In this document: positions 39,903 to 45,569 of the stretch, one piece after another | Layout of the letters: every line of letters begins with the position of its first letter | Numbering within the stretch: the stretch's first letter is position 1 | Assembly (NCBI RefSeq): GCF_010728925.1 | Contig: NZ_AP022608.1 | Coordinates: 2,108,001-2,172,000, forward strand | Length of the DNA stretch: 64,000 nucleotides | Source: Mycolicibacterium gadium | Lineage (GTDB): Bacteria; Actinomycetota; Actinomycetes; Mycobacteriales; Mycobacteriaceae | Direction: 5' to 3' | Translations under genes and position numbers: made by a program | The notes under the pieces: model-generated | Database searches by the model: none | The model's input: only the letters and a program-made list of their open reading frames with translations | What the model was told of the DNA's origin: nothing

Positions 39903-39963
39903 TCGGATGGTCTACCAGGTTGACCCTTCATACCTGGGCCGATGCAGAGAATTCGACGCGGGC

Positions 39964-39990
39964 GGTTTCGGCAGTCCCGTAATTGGGTAC
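39964..39990 (+). promoter_or_regulatory. SigF-type promoter before the sigma factor gene
   Basis: GGTTT (39964-39968), 16-bp spacer, GGGTAC (39985-39990), a full match to mycobacterial GGWWT-N16/17-GGGTAY. The leader to the GTG at 40061 is about 65 bases. It implies that this SigF-class gene is transcribed by SigF-type polymerase, including its own product. Confidence 0.72.
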
Positions 39991-40060
39991 AGCTACCTGC
40001 ACTAGAGGTTCAGATCCGAGCCGCTTCATCAGCAAGGCAACCGGATAGGGGCAACCTCGC

Positions 40061-40867
40061 GTGTCCGAAAACAGTACGTCCGAGTACGCCGACCTCACCG
40101 ACATGTTTCGCCGATTGGCGACTCTCGATGAAGGTTCGGCCGCATACCGCCGTCAGCGCGACGAGATCATCGCGCGTGGACTGCCAATCGCGAATCACAT
40201 CGCCCGTCGCTTCCGTAATCGGGGCGAGCCGAACGACGACCTCGTACAGGCGGCCCGGGTGGGACTGGTCAACGCCGTCAACCGTTTCGACCCAGAGAAC
40301 GGCGCGGACTTCCTGGCCTTCGCCGTGCCGACGATGATGGGCGAGGTCCGCCGCCACTTCCGCGACTACGGATGGGCCGTCAAGGTCCCCCGCCGCCTGA
40401 AAGACCTCCAGGGCCAAATCGTCAAGGCTCGTGGCGCGCTGTCCCAGGACCTCAATCGGGCGCCGACCGCCACAGAGATTGCGAAATACCTGGAGATCGA
40501 CCGCGAATCGGTAGTCGAAGCGACGATCGCGAGCAGCAACTACTCCACGCTGTCCACTGACGTGCAGGCAGGCCCGGACACCGACTTCCGGCCGATAGGG
40601 GACACGATCGGCGAGGTGGATCCCAACATCGATAAGGTGCTCGCCCTCGCGACCGTACGTCCATTGATCGCTGCCCTGCCTGAACGCGAACAACGGGTGC
40701 TGAGCCTTCGGTTCTTCGACAACATGACCCAGACGCAGATCGCCGAGCGGATGGGCTACTCACAGATGCACGTATCGCGGCTCATCTCCAAGGCCCTCGC
40801 CACGCTGCGTGACCAGGTTCGCGAAGCTGACGAGGCAATCACGAGCAGGGCCGCAGTACCCGCCTGA
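40061..40867 (+). CDS. SigF-class (sigma-B/F/G) sigma factor
   Basis: 268 aa starting at GTG after ATAGGGG. Region 2 (GEPNDDLVQAARVGLVNAVNRFDPENGADFLAFAVPTMMGEVRRHFRDYGWAVKVPRRL) and region 4 (LPEREQRVLSLRFFDNMTQTQIAERMGYSQMHVSRLISKAL) are intact; regions 3 lies between. No rsbW/usfX-type anti-sigma gene is adjacent, unlike the classical sigF operon. The RsbW-like domain of the 53621-57781 protein is a distant candidate partner. A matching promoter is directly upstream. The MMPL-FHA gene follows 68 bp later. Confidence 0.93.
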   Translation: MSENSTSEYADLTDMFRRLATLDEGSAAYRRQRDEIIARGLPIANHIARRFRNRGEPNDDLVQAARVGLVNAVNRFDPENGADFLAFAVPTMMGEVRRHFRDYGWAVKVPRRLKDLQGQIVKARGALSQDLNRAPTATEIAKYLEIDRESVVEATIASSNYSTLSTDVQAGPDTDFRPIGDTIGEVDPNIDKVLALATVRPLIAALPEREQRVLSLRFFDNMTQTQIAERMGYSQMHVSRLISKALATLRDQVREADEAITSRAAVPA

Positions 40868-40935: not shown

Positions 40936-43900
40936 ATGAACGAGGTCGGGTTTCGTCCGCTGGTCGCAAAGGTGATGCAGAGTAGTTCAGCGAACGGCGG
41001 CGCGCTGACGCGGTTGGCCGCCTTCACCGTGCGCTCCCCCAAGCTGGTTCTCGCAGTCCTCGCGCTCCTGCTCGGTGTCAGCATCGTCATCGGCGGCGGC
41101 GTGTCCGACAAGCTCGCTGTGGGCGGCTACAACGCCCCGTCATCAGAGTCGACTCACGCCGCCGAGGTCATGGATCAGAACTTCGGCACCACCGCGAACC
41201 TGGTGATCCAGGTGCTTCCGCGGGAAGGCACCGTCGACAGCCCCGAGGTCGCCGACGTAGCCGACCAGGTCAACGACCTCATCAAAGCTGAGCCCGAGGC
41301 GAAAGTCCTCCGATCGTTCACCGACCCCGCGGCCACCGATCTGCGCAGCCATGACAATCGCTCCGGCCTCATGCTGGTGCACGTCAGCGGAACCGCGGAT
41401 GAGGCGGCCGACACCGCCAAGCAACTGGTCGCCGACCTGCCCGCCAACCCGGACGTCGCGGTGCGCGCCGGCGGCACCCTTGGTGTCCAGCAAGAGATCC
41501 GAGCCAAAGTCAAGAAGGACCTCCTGGTCAGCGAGAGTATTGCGCTGCCGGTCTCGATGGCCGTGCTCGTCATCGTCTTCGGGGGGCTCATCGCCGCATT
41601 CCTGCCGATCGTCGTCGGCATCACGTCGATCGTCACGACGCTGCTCGTGCTCGTACTCATGACGCGCGTCACCGAAGTCTCGACACATGCCCTCACCGTC
41701 GCGACGGCCTTCGGTCTCGGGTTGTCCATCGACTTCGGCCTGTTGATGGTGTCGAGATTCCGCGAAGAACGCGACAGCGGTAAGGAACACCAGGCGGCGA
41801 TCGTCGCCACGGTGGCCACCGCGGGCCGCACGATCATCTTCAGCGCGGCGACGGTCACCCTGGCGATGTTGTCGCTGCTCGTGTTCCCCACGTATTTCCT
41901 GCGCTCGGTCGGCATCGCCGCGAGCGCTACCGTCATGCTGTCGGCGTTGAGCGCAATCATCGTGCTGCCCGCGATGCTGTCGCTGCTGGGAAAGCGCATC
42001 GACTCGCTGGCCATCATCCGGCGGAAGACGCCCCCGTCCGCGGACTCCGCGTTCTGGCGGCGGTTCGCCGCGGCGGTGATCCGCCGCCCACTCCTCTACG
42101 CCTTGCCCGTCGTCGTGGTGCTGATCGGTCTCGGGGTTCCTTTCCTGAAAGTCCAGTTCACCAATCCCGATGAGCGCGCGCTGCCCACCGACTCGAACGC
42201 GCGACTGGTGGCCGAGTCGTTACAGCGGGACTATCCGCTGGATCCCTCCCAGGCGATCACCTTGGTGACGCAGAACAACGCCGACGCCCTGGAAACGCTT
42301 GCCGCCGATGTCTCCCAGATGCCCGACGTGGTACTCGTCAATGGATCCGTCGGCAAGTTCGAGCGCGGCGCGCAGGTCGGCGAGGCCCCGCCCAGCGAGA
42401 GTGATGGCGCGGCCTATGTGTTGGCATATCTTGCGGTGGACTCGGATTCCCAAGCGGCAGAACAGCTCGTGCACGACATCCGCGCGAAGATCACCGACAA
42501 GCAGGTCGAGGTGGGCGGACCGTCGGCCACGCTGATCGACAGCCGGTCGGCGATCGCACAGCGGCTGCCGTGGGCGATCGGATTGATCGCGGTCTTCACC
42601 TTCATCCTGCTGTTCCTGTTCACCGGCAGCGTCGTCGTTCCGGTGAAGGCGCTGCTACTGAACCTGCTGGTGCTGTCCGGTGTCCTCGGCGTCATGACGT
42701 GGATCTTCCAGGACGGGCATCTGTCGTCGCTGCTCGGATTCACTCCTGCGCCGCTGAATTTGTCGATGGTGGTTCTGCTCTGCGCCATCGCGTTCAGCCT
42801 CTCCGTCGACTACGAGATCTTCCTACTGAGCCGCATCAAGGAGGCCAGAGACTCGGGTATGTCGAACGACGAGGCCATCGTCGTCGGACTTGGCCGGGTC
42901 GGCCGGATCGTCACCAGCGCAGCACTTTTGCTGACCATCACACTGGTCTCGTTCGCCAACGGAATGTCGTTCATGAAGATGTTCGGTATCGGCACGGCGC
43001 TGGCCGTCGTGATCGATGCGACGATCATTCGTGGCGTGGTCGTACCGGCGTTCCTACGTCTGGCAGGCGAACTCAACTGGTGGGCACCGAAACCGTTGCG
43101 GTGGCTGCATTCCCGCATCGGTATCAGCGAGGCGCTGTCCTTCGCCGTGGAAGAGGCGACGATGGAGGTGCCCAGGCCGGCTGTTCTGTCGCTGAACTCG
43201 ATGCATGCGGCGCCTCCGGTCCGCACGCCGGCCGAACTCGCCCGCCGGGTCCAGGTCATCTCCGGTCAGCATCTGGTTGCGAACGTGAACGGCATCGTGA
43301 TCGTGGTGGCCAACCGCAAGTCGCTGGCGCAACAAGCGATGGCCGCCCAGCAGATGTCGCACCTCGTCGAGATCGTCCGGCGGAGCGAGCCCGCGATGTT
43401 GTCGTATGCGTTCTCGCAGCTCGCCCAGAGCGGCACGTGGAGTCGCGATCTCGCGGAGGTCGGCATCGTCATGCCCACCGAAACGGGTCTGGAGATCTTC
43501 TTGTGCGGCGGTGTCACGGTGGCGCTCGACGACGGTACGGGGGTCACCCTGATCGAGGGGCGCAACCGCTGCCTACACCAAACCGTGCGGACGCCCGGCG
43601 TCGCCGCGGTGGTCACGGTCGACGAACTGGGCAAGCGGCCCGCCCTTCCCGCTCCCGACCAAAACGCCGTCTACTCGATGTCCGACGGCGTTGTTCCGGG
43701 GCGCGGCGCGGTGGTGTGGACGACGGAGGCCGCCGCGACGACACCACCCGTGCGATGCGTGGTCCTCGATGACAACTCCCGGATCGAGGTCGACCGTGAC
43801 TGCGTCGTCGGTCGCTATCCGCACGACTCGCACGCGGCGCGGCAGGGTCTTCGTCCGGTGTCTGTCTACGACCGCTCCGGCCTGATGTCCCGGGCGCACA

Positions 43901-44133
43901 TGGAGATTCGAATCATCGACGGCGAGCTGTTCGTCGTGGACCGGAACTCGACGAACGGCGTATTCATCCGTGAGCCTCGACAGGACGGGTGGATGCGGAT
44001 CGACCCGTGGCGACCCACGGCCTTCCGGGACGGCGCCTCGGTGCGCGTCGGCGGTCGGACATTTCGGGTCCAACCGCAGGCCAAGGTGCAAGAGCAGCGC
44101 GAGCAGCCTCGCGTGCCCGCCATGTCGGTCTAG
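40936..44133 (+). CDS. MMPL/RND transporter fused to a C-terminal FHA domain
   Basis: 1065 aa. Residues 1 to about 730 form an MMPL (YdfJ-like RND) transporter: N-terminal membrane helix near 35-55, extracytoplasmic loop, two multi-helix bundles (about 190-375 and 545-720) with FGLGLSIDFGLLMVSRFREE and CAIAFSLSVDYEIFLLSRIKEA. Residues about 740-930 are an unassigned soluble region. Residues about 935-1045 are a forkhead-associated domain with Gly959-Arg960, Ser985-Arg986-x-His988 and Asn1004-Ser-Thr-Asn-Gly1008, the conserved phosphothreonine-binding residues. The fusion would tie export to Ser/Thr kinase signalling. It follows a SigF-class gene on the same strand. No ribosome site is evident. 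Confidence 0.9.
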   Translation: MNEVGFRPLVAKVMQSSSANGGALTRLAAFTVRSPKLVLAVLALLLGVSIVIGGGVSDKLAVGGYNAPSSESTHAAEVMDQNFGTTANLVIQVLPREGTVDSPEVADVADQVNDLIKAEPEAKVLRSFTDPAATDLRSHDNRSGLMLVHVSGTADEAADTAKQLVADLPANPDVAVRAGGTLGVQQEIRAKVKKDLLVSESIALPVSMAVLVIVFGGLIAAFLPIVVGITSIVTTLLVLVLMTRVTEVSTHALTVATAFGLGLSIDFGLLMVSRFREERDSGKEHQAAIVATVATAGRTIIFSAATVTLAMLSLLVFPTYFLRSVGIAASATVMLSALSAIIVLPAMLSLLGKRIDSLAIIRRKTPPSADSAFWRRFAAAVIRRPLLYALPVVVVLIGLGVPFLKVQFTNPDERALPTDSNARLVAESLQRDYPLDPSQAITLVTQNNADALETLAADVSQMPDVVLVNGSVGKFERGAQVGEAPPSESDGAAYVLAYLAVDSDSQAAEQLVHDIRAKITDKQVEVGGPSATLIDSRSAIAQRLPWAIGLIAVFTFILLFLFTGSVVVPVKALLLNLLVLSGVLGVMTWIFQDGHLSSLLGFTPAPLNLSMVVLLCAIAFSLSVDYEIFLLSRIKEARDSGMSNDEAIVVGLGRVGRIVTSAALLLTITLVSFANGMSFMKMFGIGTALAVVIDATIIRGVVVPAFLRLAGELNWWAPKPLRWLHSRIGISEALSFAVEEATMEVPRPAVLSLNSMHAAPPVRTPAELARRVQVISGQHLVANVNGIVIVVANRKSLAQQAMAAQQMSHLVEIVRRSEPAMLSYAFSQLAQSGTWSRDLAEVGIVMPTETGLEIFLCGGVTVALDDGTGVTLIEGRNRCLHQTVRTPGVAAVVTVDELGKRPALPAPDQNAVYSMSDGVVPGRGAVVWTTEAAATTPPVRCVVLDDNSRIEVDRDCVVGRYPHDSHAARQGLRPVSVYDRSGLMSRAHMEIRIIDGELFVVDRNSTNGVFIREPRQDGWMRIDPWRPTAFRDGASVRVGGRTFRVQPQAKVQEQREQPRVPAMSV

Positions 44134-44245: not shown

Positions 44246-45569
44246 TCTAGGGGTCGATGCAACAGTCTCTGATTCGTGTGGAGGCGTGTTGCGTTGTCTG
44301 TTTTGACTTTGAGCTCTGTTGTTCGTCAGTTCTGGAGGCATGTCAGTGATGGCCATACTGTCGAGGAGGCAAGCTGGGCTGTCGGCGTGTCGAGGCGCAC
44401 GGGATTTCGCTGGTTCCGCGACGCTGGCGGGGTGAAACCACGATCGGTAGTGCCCAGCTCATCGGGCCTGAAGCCGCGGATGACGCTGCAGGATCGGATT
44501 CAGATCGAAATCGGCGTGGCGACCAATGAGTCGCTGCGTGCGATTGGTAGCCGGCTGTTACCTCCTCGGCCGGCGTCGACAATCAAACGCGAAATCGACA
44601 ACAACGGCCGACACACCGTCGATCACCCGGACCGCAACTCAGGGTATCGGCGAAAGCATGCCTTCGGGGCACGCCAGAGTACCGCAGCGCCGCGGGGGGC
44701 TACTGCGCGCTGACGGCGCAGGCATACTCTGATCGGCGGGCGCGTCGCCCGAAAGCGGGCAAGCTGGCTGTTAGCGAGAGCTGCACGATGAAGTGCAGGC
44801 CCGGCTGCTCGACGAGCACAGTCCCAAGCAGATCGCCAAGCGGTTGGTGCTGGATTTTCCCGACGATGTGGAGATGCGGGTGTCGCACGAAACCATCTAC
44901 ACCTCGATTTATGTCCAGGGCAAAGGCAGTCTGCGTCGCGAACTGCATACCTGTCTGCGCACCGGGCGAGCGTTGCGTAAGCCCCAGCGCCGCCCCGATG
45001 AACGCCGTGGTCGCATCCGCGACATGGTCAACATCAGTGAGCGTCCACCCGAGGTTGAAGACCGCGCGGTGCCCGGGCATTGGGAGGGCGATCTGATCCT
45101 GGGCAGTACTGCCTCGGGTTCAGCGATTGGCACCGTGGTCGAACGGATGACCCGGTTTGTGATGCTGCTGCATCTGCCCGACGATCACACCGCGGTGGCC
45201 GTGCAGGAAGCGATCGTGGCGAAAATGGCGCAACTGCCGTTGATCCTGCGCAAAACACTGACCTGGGATCAGGGCAGCGAGATGGCCAACCATGCGGCGA
45301 TCGCCCAAGCCGCCGAGCTCAATATTTACTTCTGCGATCCGCACTCCCCGTGGCAGCGCGGCACCAATGAGAACACCAACGGCCTACTGCGCCAATACTT
45401 TGCCAAAGGCACCGACCTATCGGTCTTTCCGGCCGATTACCTCGACTACGTCGCGACCAAACTCAACCGCCGGCCCCGCGAAACCTTGAGCTGGAAAACA
45501 CCCGCCGAAGCCCTCGACGAACTACTGTCCAACCCGTCCAAACCACCCGCTGTTGCATCTACCGCTTGA
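44246..45569 (+). mobile_element. IS30-family insertion sequence, decayed
   Basis: About 1324 bp bounded by imperfect 20-bp inverted repeats, TCTAGGGGTCGATGCAACAG on the left (44246-44265) and the reverse complement of TCAAGCGGTAGATGCAACAG on the right (45550-45569), 17 of 20 matching. The transposase between them is frame-disrupted. The right repeat overlaps the transposase stop codon, as in compact IS elements. The flanks are two halves of a local repeat. Exact ends and target duplication are uncertain by a few bases. Confidence 0.78.
44276..45569 (+). pseudogene. IS30-family transposase, frameshifted
   Basis: The N-terminal part (44276-44713) has the IS30 HTH region: GHTVEEASWAVGVSRRTGFRWF and a SLRAIGSRLLPPRPASTIKREIDNN-type block. 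The C-terminal part (44793-45569) has the DDE catalytic core: HWEGDLILG, TWDQGSEMANH and NENTNGLLRQYFAKGTDL. Between about 44640 and 44795 the reading frame shifts at least twice: a third frame carries the linking YSDRRARRPK-type segment, and a shift near GAGAGCTGCAC (about 44780) is needed to re-enter HDEVQARLLDEHSPKQIA. The enzyme is therefore probably inactive. Confidence 0.82.

What the first reader, a model, noticed from the sequence alone, without database searches (positions are those of the whole stretch)
40936..44133. RND-type MMPL transporter fused to an FHA domain
Residues about 935-1045 hold all the hallmark FHA residues (G-R, S-R-x-H, N-x-x-N-G). The region 740-930 in between is unassigned. 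A phosphothreonine-binding module on a lipid/RND exporter would let Ser/Thr kinases recruit or gate it. Together with an upstream SigF-class gene it may form a stress-signalled export unit. I know of no well-described protein with this exact architecture, but cannot search.
Basis: partly seen in the sequence, partly recalled or inferred. Interest (0 to 1): 0.75.

Follow-up and report, generated by a model that had tools for sequence, protein, structure and literature searches.

The report
Lipid exporter with built-in phosphothreonine reader
This mycobacterial gene encodes an MmpL-type membrane transporter whose tail carries a domain predicted to have a phosphatase fold followed by an FHA domain, which would likely let the cell's protein kinases switch or position the exporter directly; a sister group of these transporters carries repeats that look like kinase target sites.

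The parts
39965..39989 (+). SigF-type promoter motif GTTT-N16-GGGTA, ending 71 nt before the sigF ORF
   Evidence: Only match in the 64-kb window, 0.53 expected on both strands; one match in each of the five other distinct sigF-linked loci, its start 90-97 nt before the homologous sigF start; M. smegmatis SigF consensus GTTT-N14-19-GGGTA (PMC4694148, passages)
40061..40867 (+). SigF-class RNA polymerase sigma factor
   Evidence: NCBIfam SigF PRK07122 378.5 bits (cut-off 372) and SigBFG 278.1 bits (cut-off 234.35); one of two genes of this genome over the TIGR02980 cut-off; gene ends 68 nt before the exporter
40936..44133 (+). MMPL - PP2C-fold domain - FHA fusion protein, 1065 aa
40936..43140 (+). 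Residues 1-735: MmpL3-like RND/MMPL transporter; D266 and D625 in the two S-[IV]-D-[FY] motifs
   Evidence: Pfam MMPL, two stretches; MmpL3 structures E about 2e-96 to 1e-101; positions
43141..43248 (+). Residues 736-771: linker with one EEAT-x-x-V motif (T742)
   Evidence: Motif; a motif of this class is found before the FHA in 16 of 77 MMPL+MID+FHA proteins
43249..43722 (+). Residues 772-929 ('MID'): predicted PP2C-fold domain, likely catalytically dead
43747..44085 (+). Residues 938-1050: FHA domain with R960, S985, H988, N1007

Best explanation
This gene encodes an MmpL-type RND transporter that carries, after its membrane part, a predicted PP2C-fold domain and an FHA domain, and it likely works as an envelope-lipid exporter that is switched on or off, or brought to its site, when the FHA domain binds a threonine-phosphorylated partner made by the cell's Ser/Thr kinases. 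Shown: the one-frame architecture, the intact phosphothreonine-pocket residues, its conservation across species, the SigF-type promoter motif in the sigF-linked clade, and about 25 kinase genes in this genome. Inferred: the tail is cytoplasmic (as in MmpL3, recalled); the PP2C-fold domain is inactive and serves as a docking or spacer module; the cargo is a lipid. In the sigF-linked clade SigF is predicted to transcribe its own gene and the exporter together, giving stress control of amount (SigF) and of activity (FHA).
For: MMPL and FHA over curated cut-offs; pocket residues R960, S985, H988, N1007; the Arg is kept in 85 of 87 FHA-bearing proteins with fewer than two repeats. PP2C fold: best match PstP, and the 50 rows listed are by title or by recall PP2C/PPM-fold proteins. 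Other transporters carry FHA too: an MFS protein with a related FHA (Pfam in one protein) and, read by eye, two ABC proteins with tandem FHA in this genome. Stand-alone MID+FHA genes lie two genes from a kinase gene in 5 of 5 loci of that gene cluster (kinase identified by Pfam in one, L083). Sister exporters carry tandem acidic-Thr-x-x-hydrophobic repeats, 101 motifs in 32 tails against 0.7 in shuffles (tails chosen by the same pattern), which fits the PknA-dependent sites (acidic -1 and -3 to -6, Leu/Val +3; PMC7164672 passages). MmpL3 is in the FhaA interactome (PMC11898655 passages). Precedent: the Rv1747 FHA-I domain binds phosphorylated Rv2623 (PMC5549992 abstract).
Against: No binding, phosphorylation, transport or expression data. 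The FHA score is low (24.6 bits against 20.7). Relatives without FHA, without MID or without either exist (4, 23 and 22 of 126; some are truncated or frameshifted records). Profile-profile comparison of MID with PstP found nothing (probability 0.4 %), so PP2C rests on predicted structure, and Foldseek gave no match under E 0.001 for MID. The promoter motif was not seen before the exporter in the 17 loci without this sigF.
Confidence: 0.6

Rival explanations
1. The FHA domain does not gate transport; it is a scaffold that tethers the exporter to phosphorylated polar-growth proteins, as FhaA may do in trans for the MmpL3 complex.
For: FhaA interactome contains MmpL3 and nine MmpL3 interactors (PMC11898655 passages); a non-catalytic PP2C fold plus FHA would suit docking.
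Against: No localisation data; the exporter was found in a minority of species (at least 21 of 248 genus genomes, own included), unlike core growth machinery.
Confidence: 0.25
2. The tail is regulated within the molecule: the linker threonine(s) are phosphorylated and bound by the protein's own FHA, as in GarA/OdhI (recalled).
For: An EEAT-x-x-V motif lies in the linker (T742); relatives with MID, acidic-Thr linker, zinc ribbon and FHA in one chain exist in other genera (read by eye).
Against: The motif is found in only 16 of 77 full-architecture proteins; in the repeat-rich clade the own FHA has lost the pocket Arg in 12 of 13.
Confidence: 0.12
3. The FHA and PP2C-like parts are passengers under weak selection, with no role in regulation.
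For: Modules are missing in several relatives (23 MMPL+FHA, 4 MMPL+MID, 22 MMPL of 126).
Against: The R, S, R, H pocket letters are kept in 76 of 77 full-architecture proteins although identity of the tail falls to 43 % among the hits.
Confidence: 0.06

Closest known systems
Rv1747 type (two FHA domains + ABC exporter, M. tuberculosis)
   Same: FHA domain on a putative envelope-lipid exporter; a phosphothreonine partner is proposed to control it (PMC5549992 abstract)
   Different: ABC ATPase instead of RND/MMPL, FHA at the N-terminus (as in this genome's own copies), no PP2C-fold domain; kinase gene pknF in its operon (PMC3908365 abstract start in listing), sigF here
MmpL3 (trehalose monomycolate exporter)
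   Same: Closest solved transporter (E to 1e-101); phosphorylated and in the FhaA interactome (PMC7164672, PMC11898655 passages)
   Different: No FHA in cis (recalled); the window protein fails the MmpL3 equivalog cut-off (416 of 1400 bits)
FhaA / FhaB-PstP locus proteins
   Same: FHA reader and PP2C fold used with envelope enzymes (recalled)
   Different: Separate proteins; PstP is an active phosphatase (recalled); here fused to the transporter and the PP2C signature not kept
Plant KAPP (membrane anchor-FHA-PP2C; recalled)
   Same: Membrane part, FHA and PP2C fold in one chain
   Different: No transporter, active phosphatase, unrelated lineage

Membership tests
MMPL/RND transporter | Pfam MMPL over cut-off, two repeats | tested here: met
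   248.8 bits vs 20.5, two stretches
MMPL/RND transporter | Proton-relay Asp in TM4 and TM10 | tested here: inconclusive
   D266 and D625 present in the expected motifs; equivalence to the MmpL3 residues is recalled, not aligned
MmpL3 equivalog | NCBIfam NF052608 cut-off | tested here: not met
   416.4 of 1400 bits
FHA domain | Pfam FHA over cut-off | tested here: met
   24.6 vs 20.7 bits
FHA domain | FHA fold | tested here: met
FHA domain | Conserved Arg, Ser, His, Asn of the pThr pocket | tested here: met
   R960, S985, H988, N1007
FHA domain | Binds phosphothreonine | not testable with these tools
   needs peptide binding
PP2C/PPM phosphatase | PP2C fold | tested here: met
PP2C/PPM phosphatase | Sequence match to a PP2C model | tested here: not met
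   No Pfam PP2C hit at E up to 1; hhalign against PstP relatives probability 0.4 %
PP2C/PPM phosphatase | Metal-binding Asp residues | tested here: inconclusive
   A-D-G position reads A-[HN]-R in most of 69 rows by strand order; no residue-level structural alignment was available
SigF regulon | GTTT-N14-19-GGGTA upstream | tested here: met
SigF regulon | SigF-dependent transcription of the operon | not testable with these tools
   needs RNA
Rv1747-type FHA exporter | ABC ATPase domain | tested here: not met
   no ABC match

The most novel reading that the evidence does not exclude
MmpL-type exporters come as reader and ligand forms: one form (the window's) carries an intact phosphothreonine-reading FHA, the sister form carries a phosphorylatable threonine array in its place, and where both are present the FHA tail of one exporter docks on the kinase-marked tail of the other, so that Ser/Thr kinases build mixed exporter assemblies on demand.
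Probability: 0.15. Interest if true: 0.85.

Novelty: new variant of a known kind. Interest (0 to 1): 0.62.

Why it matters
How Ser/Thr kinases reach the MmpL exporters that build the mycobacterial envelope is open: MmpL3 is phosphorylated and lies in the FhaA network, but those parts are separate proteins. Here exporter, PP2C-fold domain and FHA reader are one chain, so the wiring can be tested with one soluble domain and one deletion. The sister clade's tandem candidate sites give ready-made peptides to test, and the sigF-linked clade ties the exporter to a stress sigma factor.

Tried and rejected
Sequencing join or frameshift: rejected, same fusion in other species. MmpL3 orthologue: rejected by the NCBIfam cut-off. 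MID as a known Pfam family: none (DUF2625 at E 0.19 overlaps only its edge and is under its cut-off). MID to PstP by profile-profile comparison: no support, run twice, the second time with 19 of 30 fetched PstP loci (those found by a motif in either strand) plus this genome's own; several rows were read on the wrong strand. First cross-table of FHA residues took the first rather than the best HMM domain and misread six rows; redone. The two of 87 without Arg are P0078 (Ser) and P0062, whose tail matches only weakly and has no letter there. The Fisher value printed (1e-12) is not used as a probability, because the repeat-bearing rows form one clade (33 rows with one truncated, SH-aLRT 100; the label needs 2 changes; 121 of 126 proteins in the tree, P0017, P0051, P0062, P0063 and P0081 dropped): loss of the Arg is largely one event. 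In the 13 repeat-bearing FHA domains the Ser, His and N-G letters are kept, so they are not plainly dead. Viral structure library: no match under E 0.001. Counts are lower bounds: only 4-8 candidates per genome were scored. Searches take candidates by length (0.55-1.75 times 1065 aa), so short stand-alone relatives could not appear, and one search scored only the 7992 candidates sharing most words. Co-occurrence of reader and ligand forms in one genome: suggested only by two proteins (P0056, P0103) with the same longest-contig length 544770; not verified. This genome has no second exporter of this clade at E <= 1e-200 among the candidates scored, so the mixed-assembly idea is not supported for the window's own species. 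The promoter scan allowed no mismatch; in L079 one match lies about 0.5 kb upstream on the opposite strand. ORF 39942-40337 overlaps the promoter motif and has no family match: taken as spurious. Paper searches with nothing used: (0 papers) and 48, 54, 62 beyond the papers named.

Full report
OBSERVATION. The frame 40936-44133 (+) is open over 1065 codons. hmmscan finds MMPL (248.8 bits, two stretches) and FHA (24.6 bits, residues 980-1039), both over Pfam's cut-offs, and nothing over a cut-off between them. NCBIfam's best model is MmpL3, far under its cut-off (416 of 1400 bits); the nearest solved structures are MmpL3 (E down to 1e-101). The genome (5.96 Mb, one contig) is a mycobacterium: the C-terminal part is 96 % identical to a contig of Mycolicibacterium tusciae DSM 44338, although another record labelled M. 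tusciae (P0008) is only 64 %, so the species is not settled. It holds 12 FHA matches and 27 matches to the kinase family in 25 frames, so readers and writers of phosphothreonine are plentiful.

FAMILY. A search with the C-terminal 330 residues found 61 proteins, all with the MMPL domain (the tool only considers proteins of 0.55-1.75 times the full length, so short relatives could not appear). A search with the MMPL part listed the best 120 of 4560. Of the 126 proteins held, the window's included, 77 are MMPL+MID+FHA, 23 MMPL+FHA, 4 MMPL+MID and 22 MMPL without either by my HMMs; one of the 77, P0062, has no convincing FHA letters. In the genus sample at least 45 of 248 genomes match the C-terminal part at E <= 0.001 (many of these are other FHA proteins), and at least 21 of 248, own included, hold an exporter of this clade. 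In another genus of the family, genome G248 encodes a 1045-aa frame that reads MMPL, MID, FHA from end to end (read by eye; MID and FHA matched). Carriers named in the source labels include M. barrassiae, M. moriokaense, M. asiaticum, M. intermedium, M. vicinigordonae and M. camsae.

THE TAIL IS MODULAR. The same FHA type (50-55 % identical over the match) ends an MFS transporter of about 590 aa (two read in full; Pfam run on one), beside AMP-binding, ATP-grasp and DAHP-synthase genes. MID+FHA also occurs as a stand-alone gene next to an FHA-ferredoxin-oxidoreductase gene and, in 5 of 5 loci of that gene cluster, one gene further on a gene of a cluster identified in one of them (L083) as a Ser/Thr kinase; the sixth, more distant stand-alone locus L094 has the oxidoreductase but not that kinase cluster in its 20 kb. 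In other genera MID and FHA flank an acidic, Thr-rich linker and a zinc ribbon (read by eye).

READER AND LIGAND FORMS. Close relatives of the MMPL part (about 67-69 % identical) carry after the last helix a tandem array such as DEETQRLSPLRTPEPDTVRYPRP (P0118). The pattern [DE][DE]xTxx[LIVF], with x before T limited to seven residues, occurs 101 times in the 32 tails with two or more copies, against a mean of 0.7 and a maximum of 4 in 200 shuffles of the same tails (the tails were chosen by this pattern). It agrees with the sites lost on PknA depletion (acidic at -1 and -3 to -6, Leu or Val at +3; PMC7164672, passages). Of those 32 proteins 19 have no FHA and 13 do; the FHA's phosphate-contacting Arg is kept in 1 of these 13, but in 85 of 87 FHA-bearing proteins with fewer than two copies; Ser, His and N-G are kept in the 13. 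On the MMPL tree the repeat-bearing rows form one clade (33 rows including one truncated, SH-aLRT 100) nested among FHA-bearing ones, so this is mainly one evolutionary switch from reader to candidate substrate, not repeated evidence.

SIGF. A SigF-class gene ends 68 nt before the exporter (40061-40867). Of 21 loci compared (the window and 20 others; L101 is a second copy of L010 and is not counted; L079 and L080 showed MMPL+MID but no FHA match), 6 have this sigF directly upstream: window, L009, L010, L011, L074, L078. In others the neighbours include a TauD-family dioxygenase, a PF05145 protein, a CMAS-family methyltransferase, or PKS and AMP-ligase genes (Pfam on one representative each). 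GTTT-N13-18-GGGTA occurs once in the 64-kb window (0.53 expected), ending 71 nt before sigF, and once in each of the five other sigF-linked loci, in front of sigF, with diverged spacers. The M. smegmatis SigF consensus is GTTT-N14-19-GGGTA (PMC4694148, passages). In 17 loci without this sigF the exact pattern was not found upstream on the exporter's strand (judged by coordinates). So SigF autoregulation of a sigF-exporter operon is predicted for one clade only.

HOW IT LIKELY WORKS. Shown: architecture, intact FHA pocket, conservation, promoter motif. Inferred: the tail lies in the cytoplasm as in MmpL3 (recalled); a kinase-phosphorylated partner docks on the FHA and changes export or location; the PP2C-fold part is a docking module. 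Precedents: Rv1747, an ABC exporter whose FHA-I binds phosphorylated Rv2623, proposed to inhibit it (PMC5549992, abstract); MmpL3 in the FhaA interactome (PMC11898655, passages); decreased MmpL3 phosphorylation on PknA depletion (PMC7164672, passages).

LITERATURE. Searches for MmpL with FHA domain, fused, forkhead-associated or RND (4, 1 and 11 papers) list no paper whose title or abstract start describes an MMPL-FHA fusion; of these papers I read passages of PMC11898655 only. Database entries do exist under names such as 'MMPL family transporter' or 'FHA domain-containing protein', so the sequences are known while the architecture seems undescribed in what I could search.

Noticed in passing
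L084:9298-11085, L086:9829-11601: MFS transporter fused to an FHA domain of the same type, next to AMP-binding, ATP-grasp, DAHP synthase and FAD/NAD-binding genes (Pfam run on L084).
   Followed up: partly
L083:6946-16049: Stand-alone PP2C-fold+FHA gene beside an FHA-ferredoxin-oxidoreductase gene, with a Ser/Thr kinase gene beyond it and a histidine kinase-response regulator pair on the other side.
   Followed up: partly
32 of the proteins P0083-P0126: MmpL relatives with tandem DEETQRL/EPDTVRHP-type repeats after the last helix, a candidate multi-site phosphothreonine array.
   Followed up: yes
window 44276-45569: IS30-type transposase in two frames just downstream of the exporter; L010 has under 400 bases between the exporter and the next gene, so it is probably an insertion in this lineage.
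   Followed up: no
L098:6218-9403 and L004/L005: This genome has two ABC transporters with tandem FHA domains (Rv1747 type, read by eye), one about 11 kb beyond the window.
   Followed up: no
L130:6662-9745: In another genus, a PP2C-fold+zinc ribbon+FHA protein with a long linker full of acidic-Thr motifs (DERPTTFMPPAG type).
   Followed up: no
L128:7475-9499: Genome G028 has a repeat-tailed exporter of this clade without FHA.
   Followed up: partly
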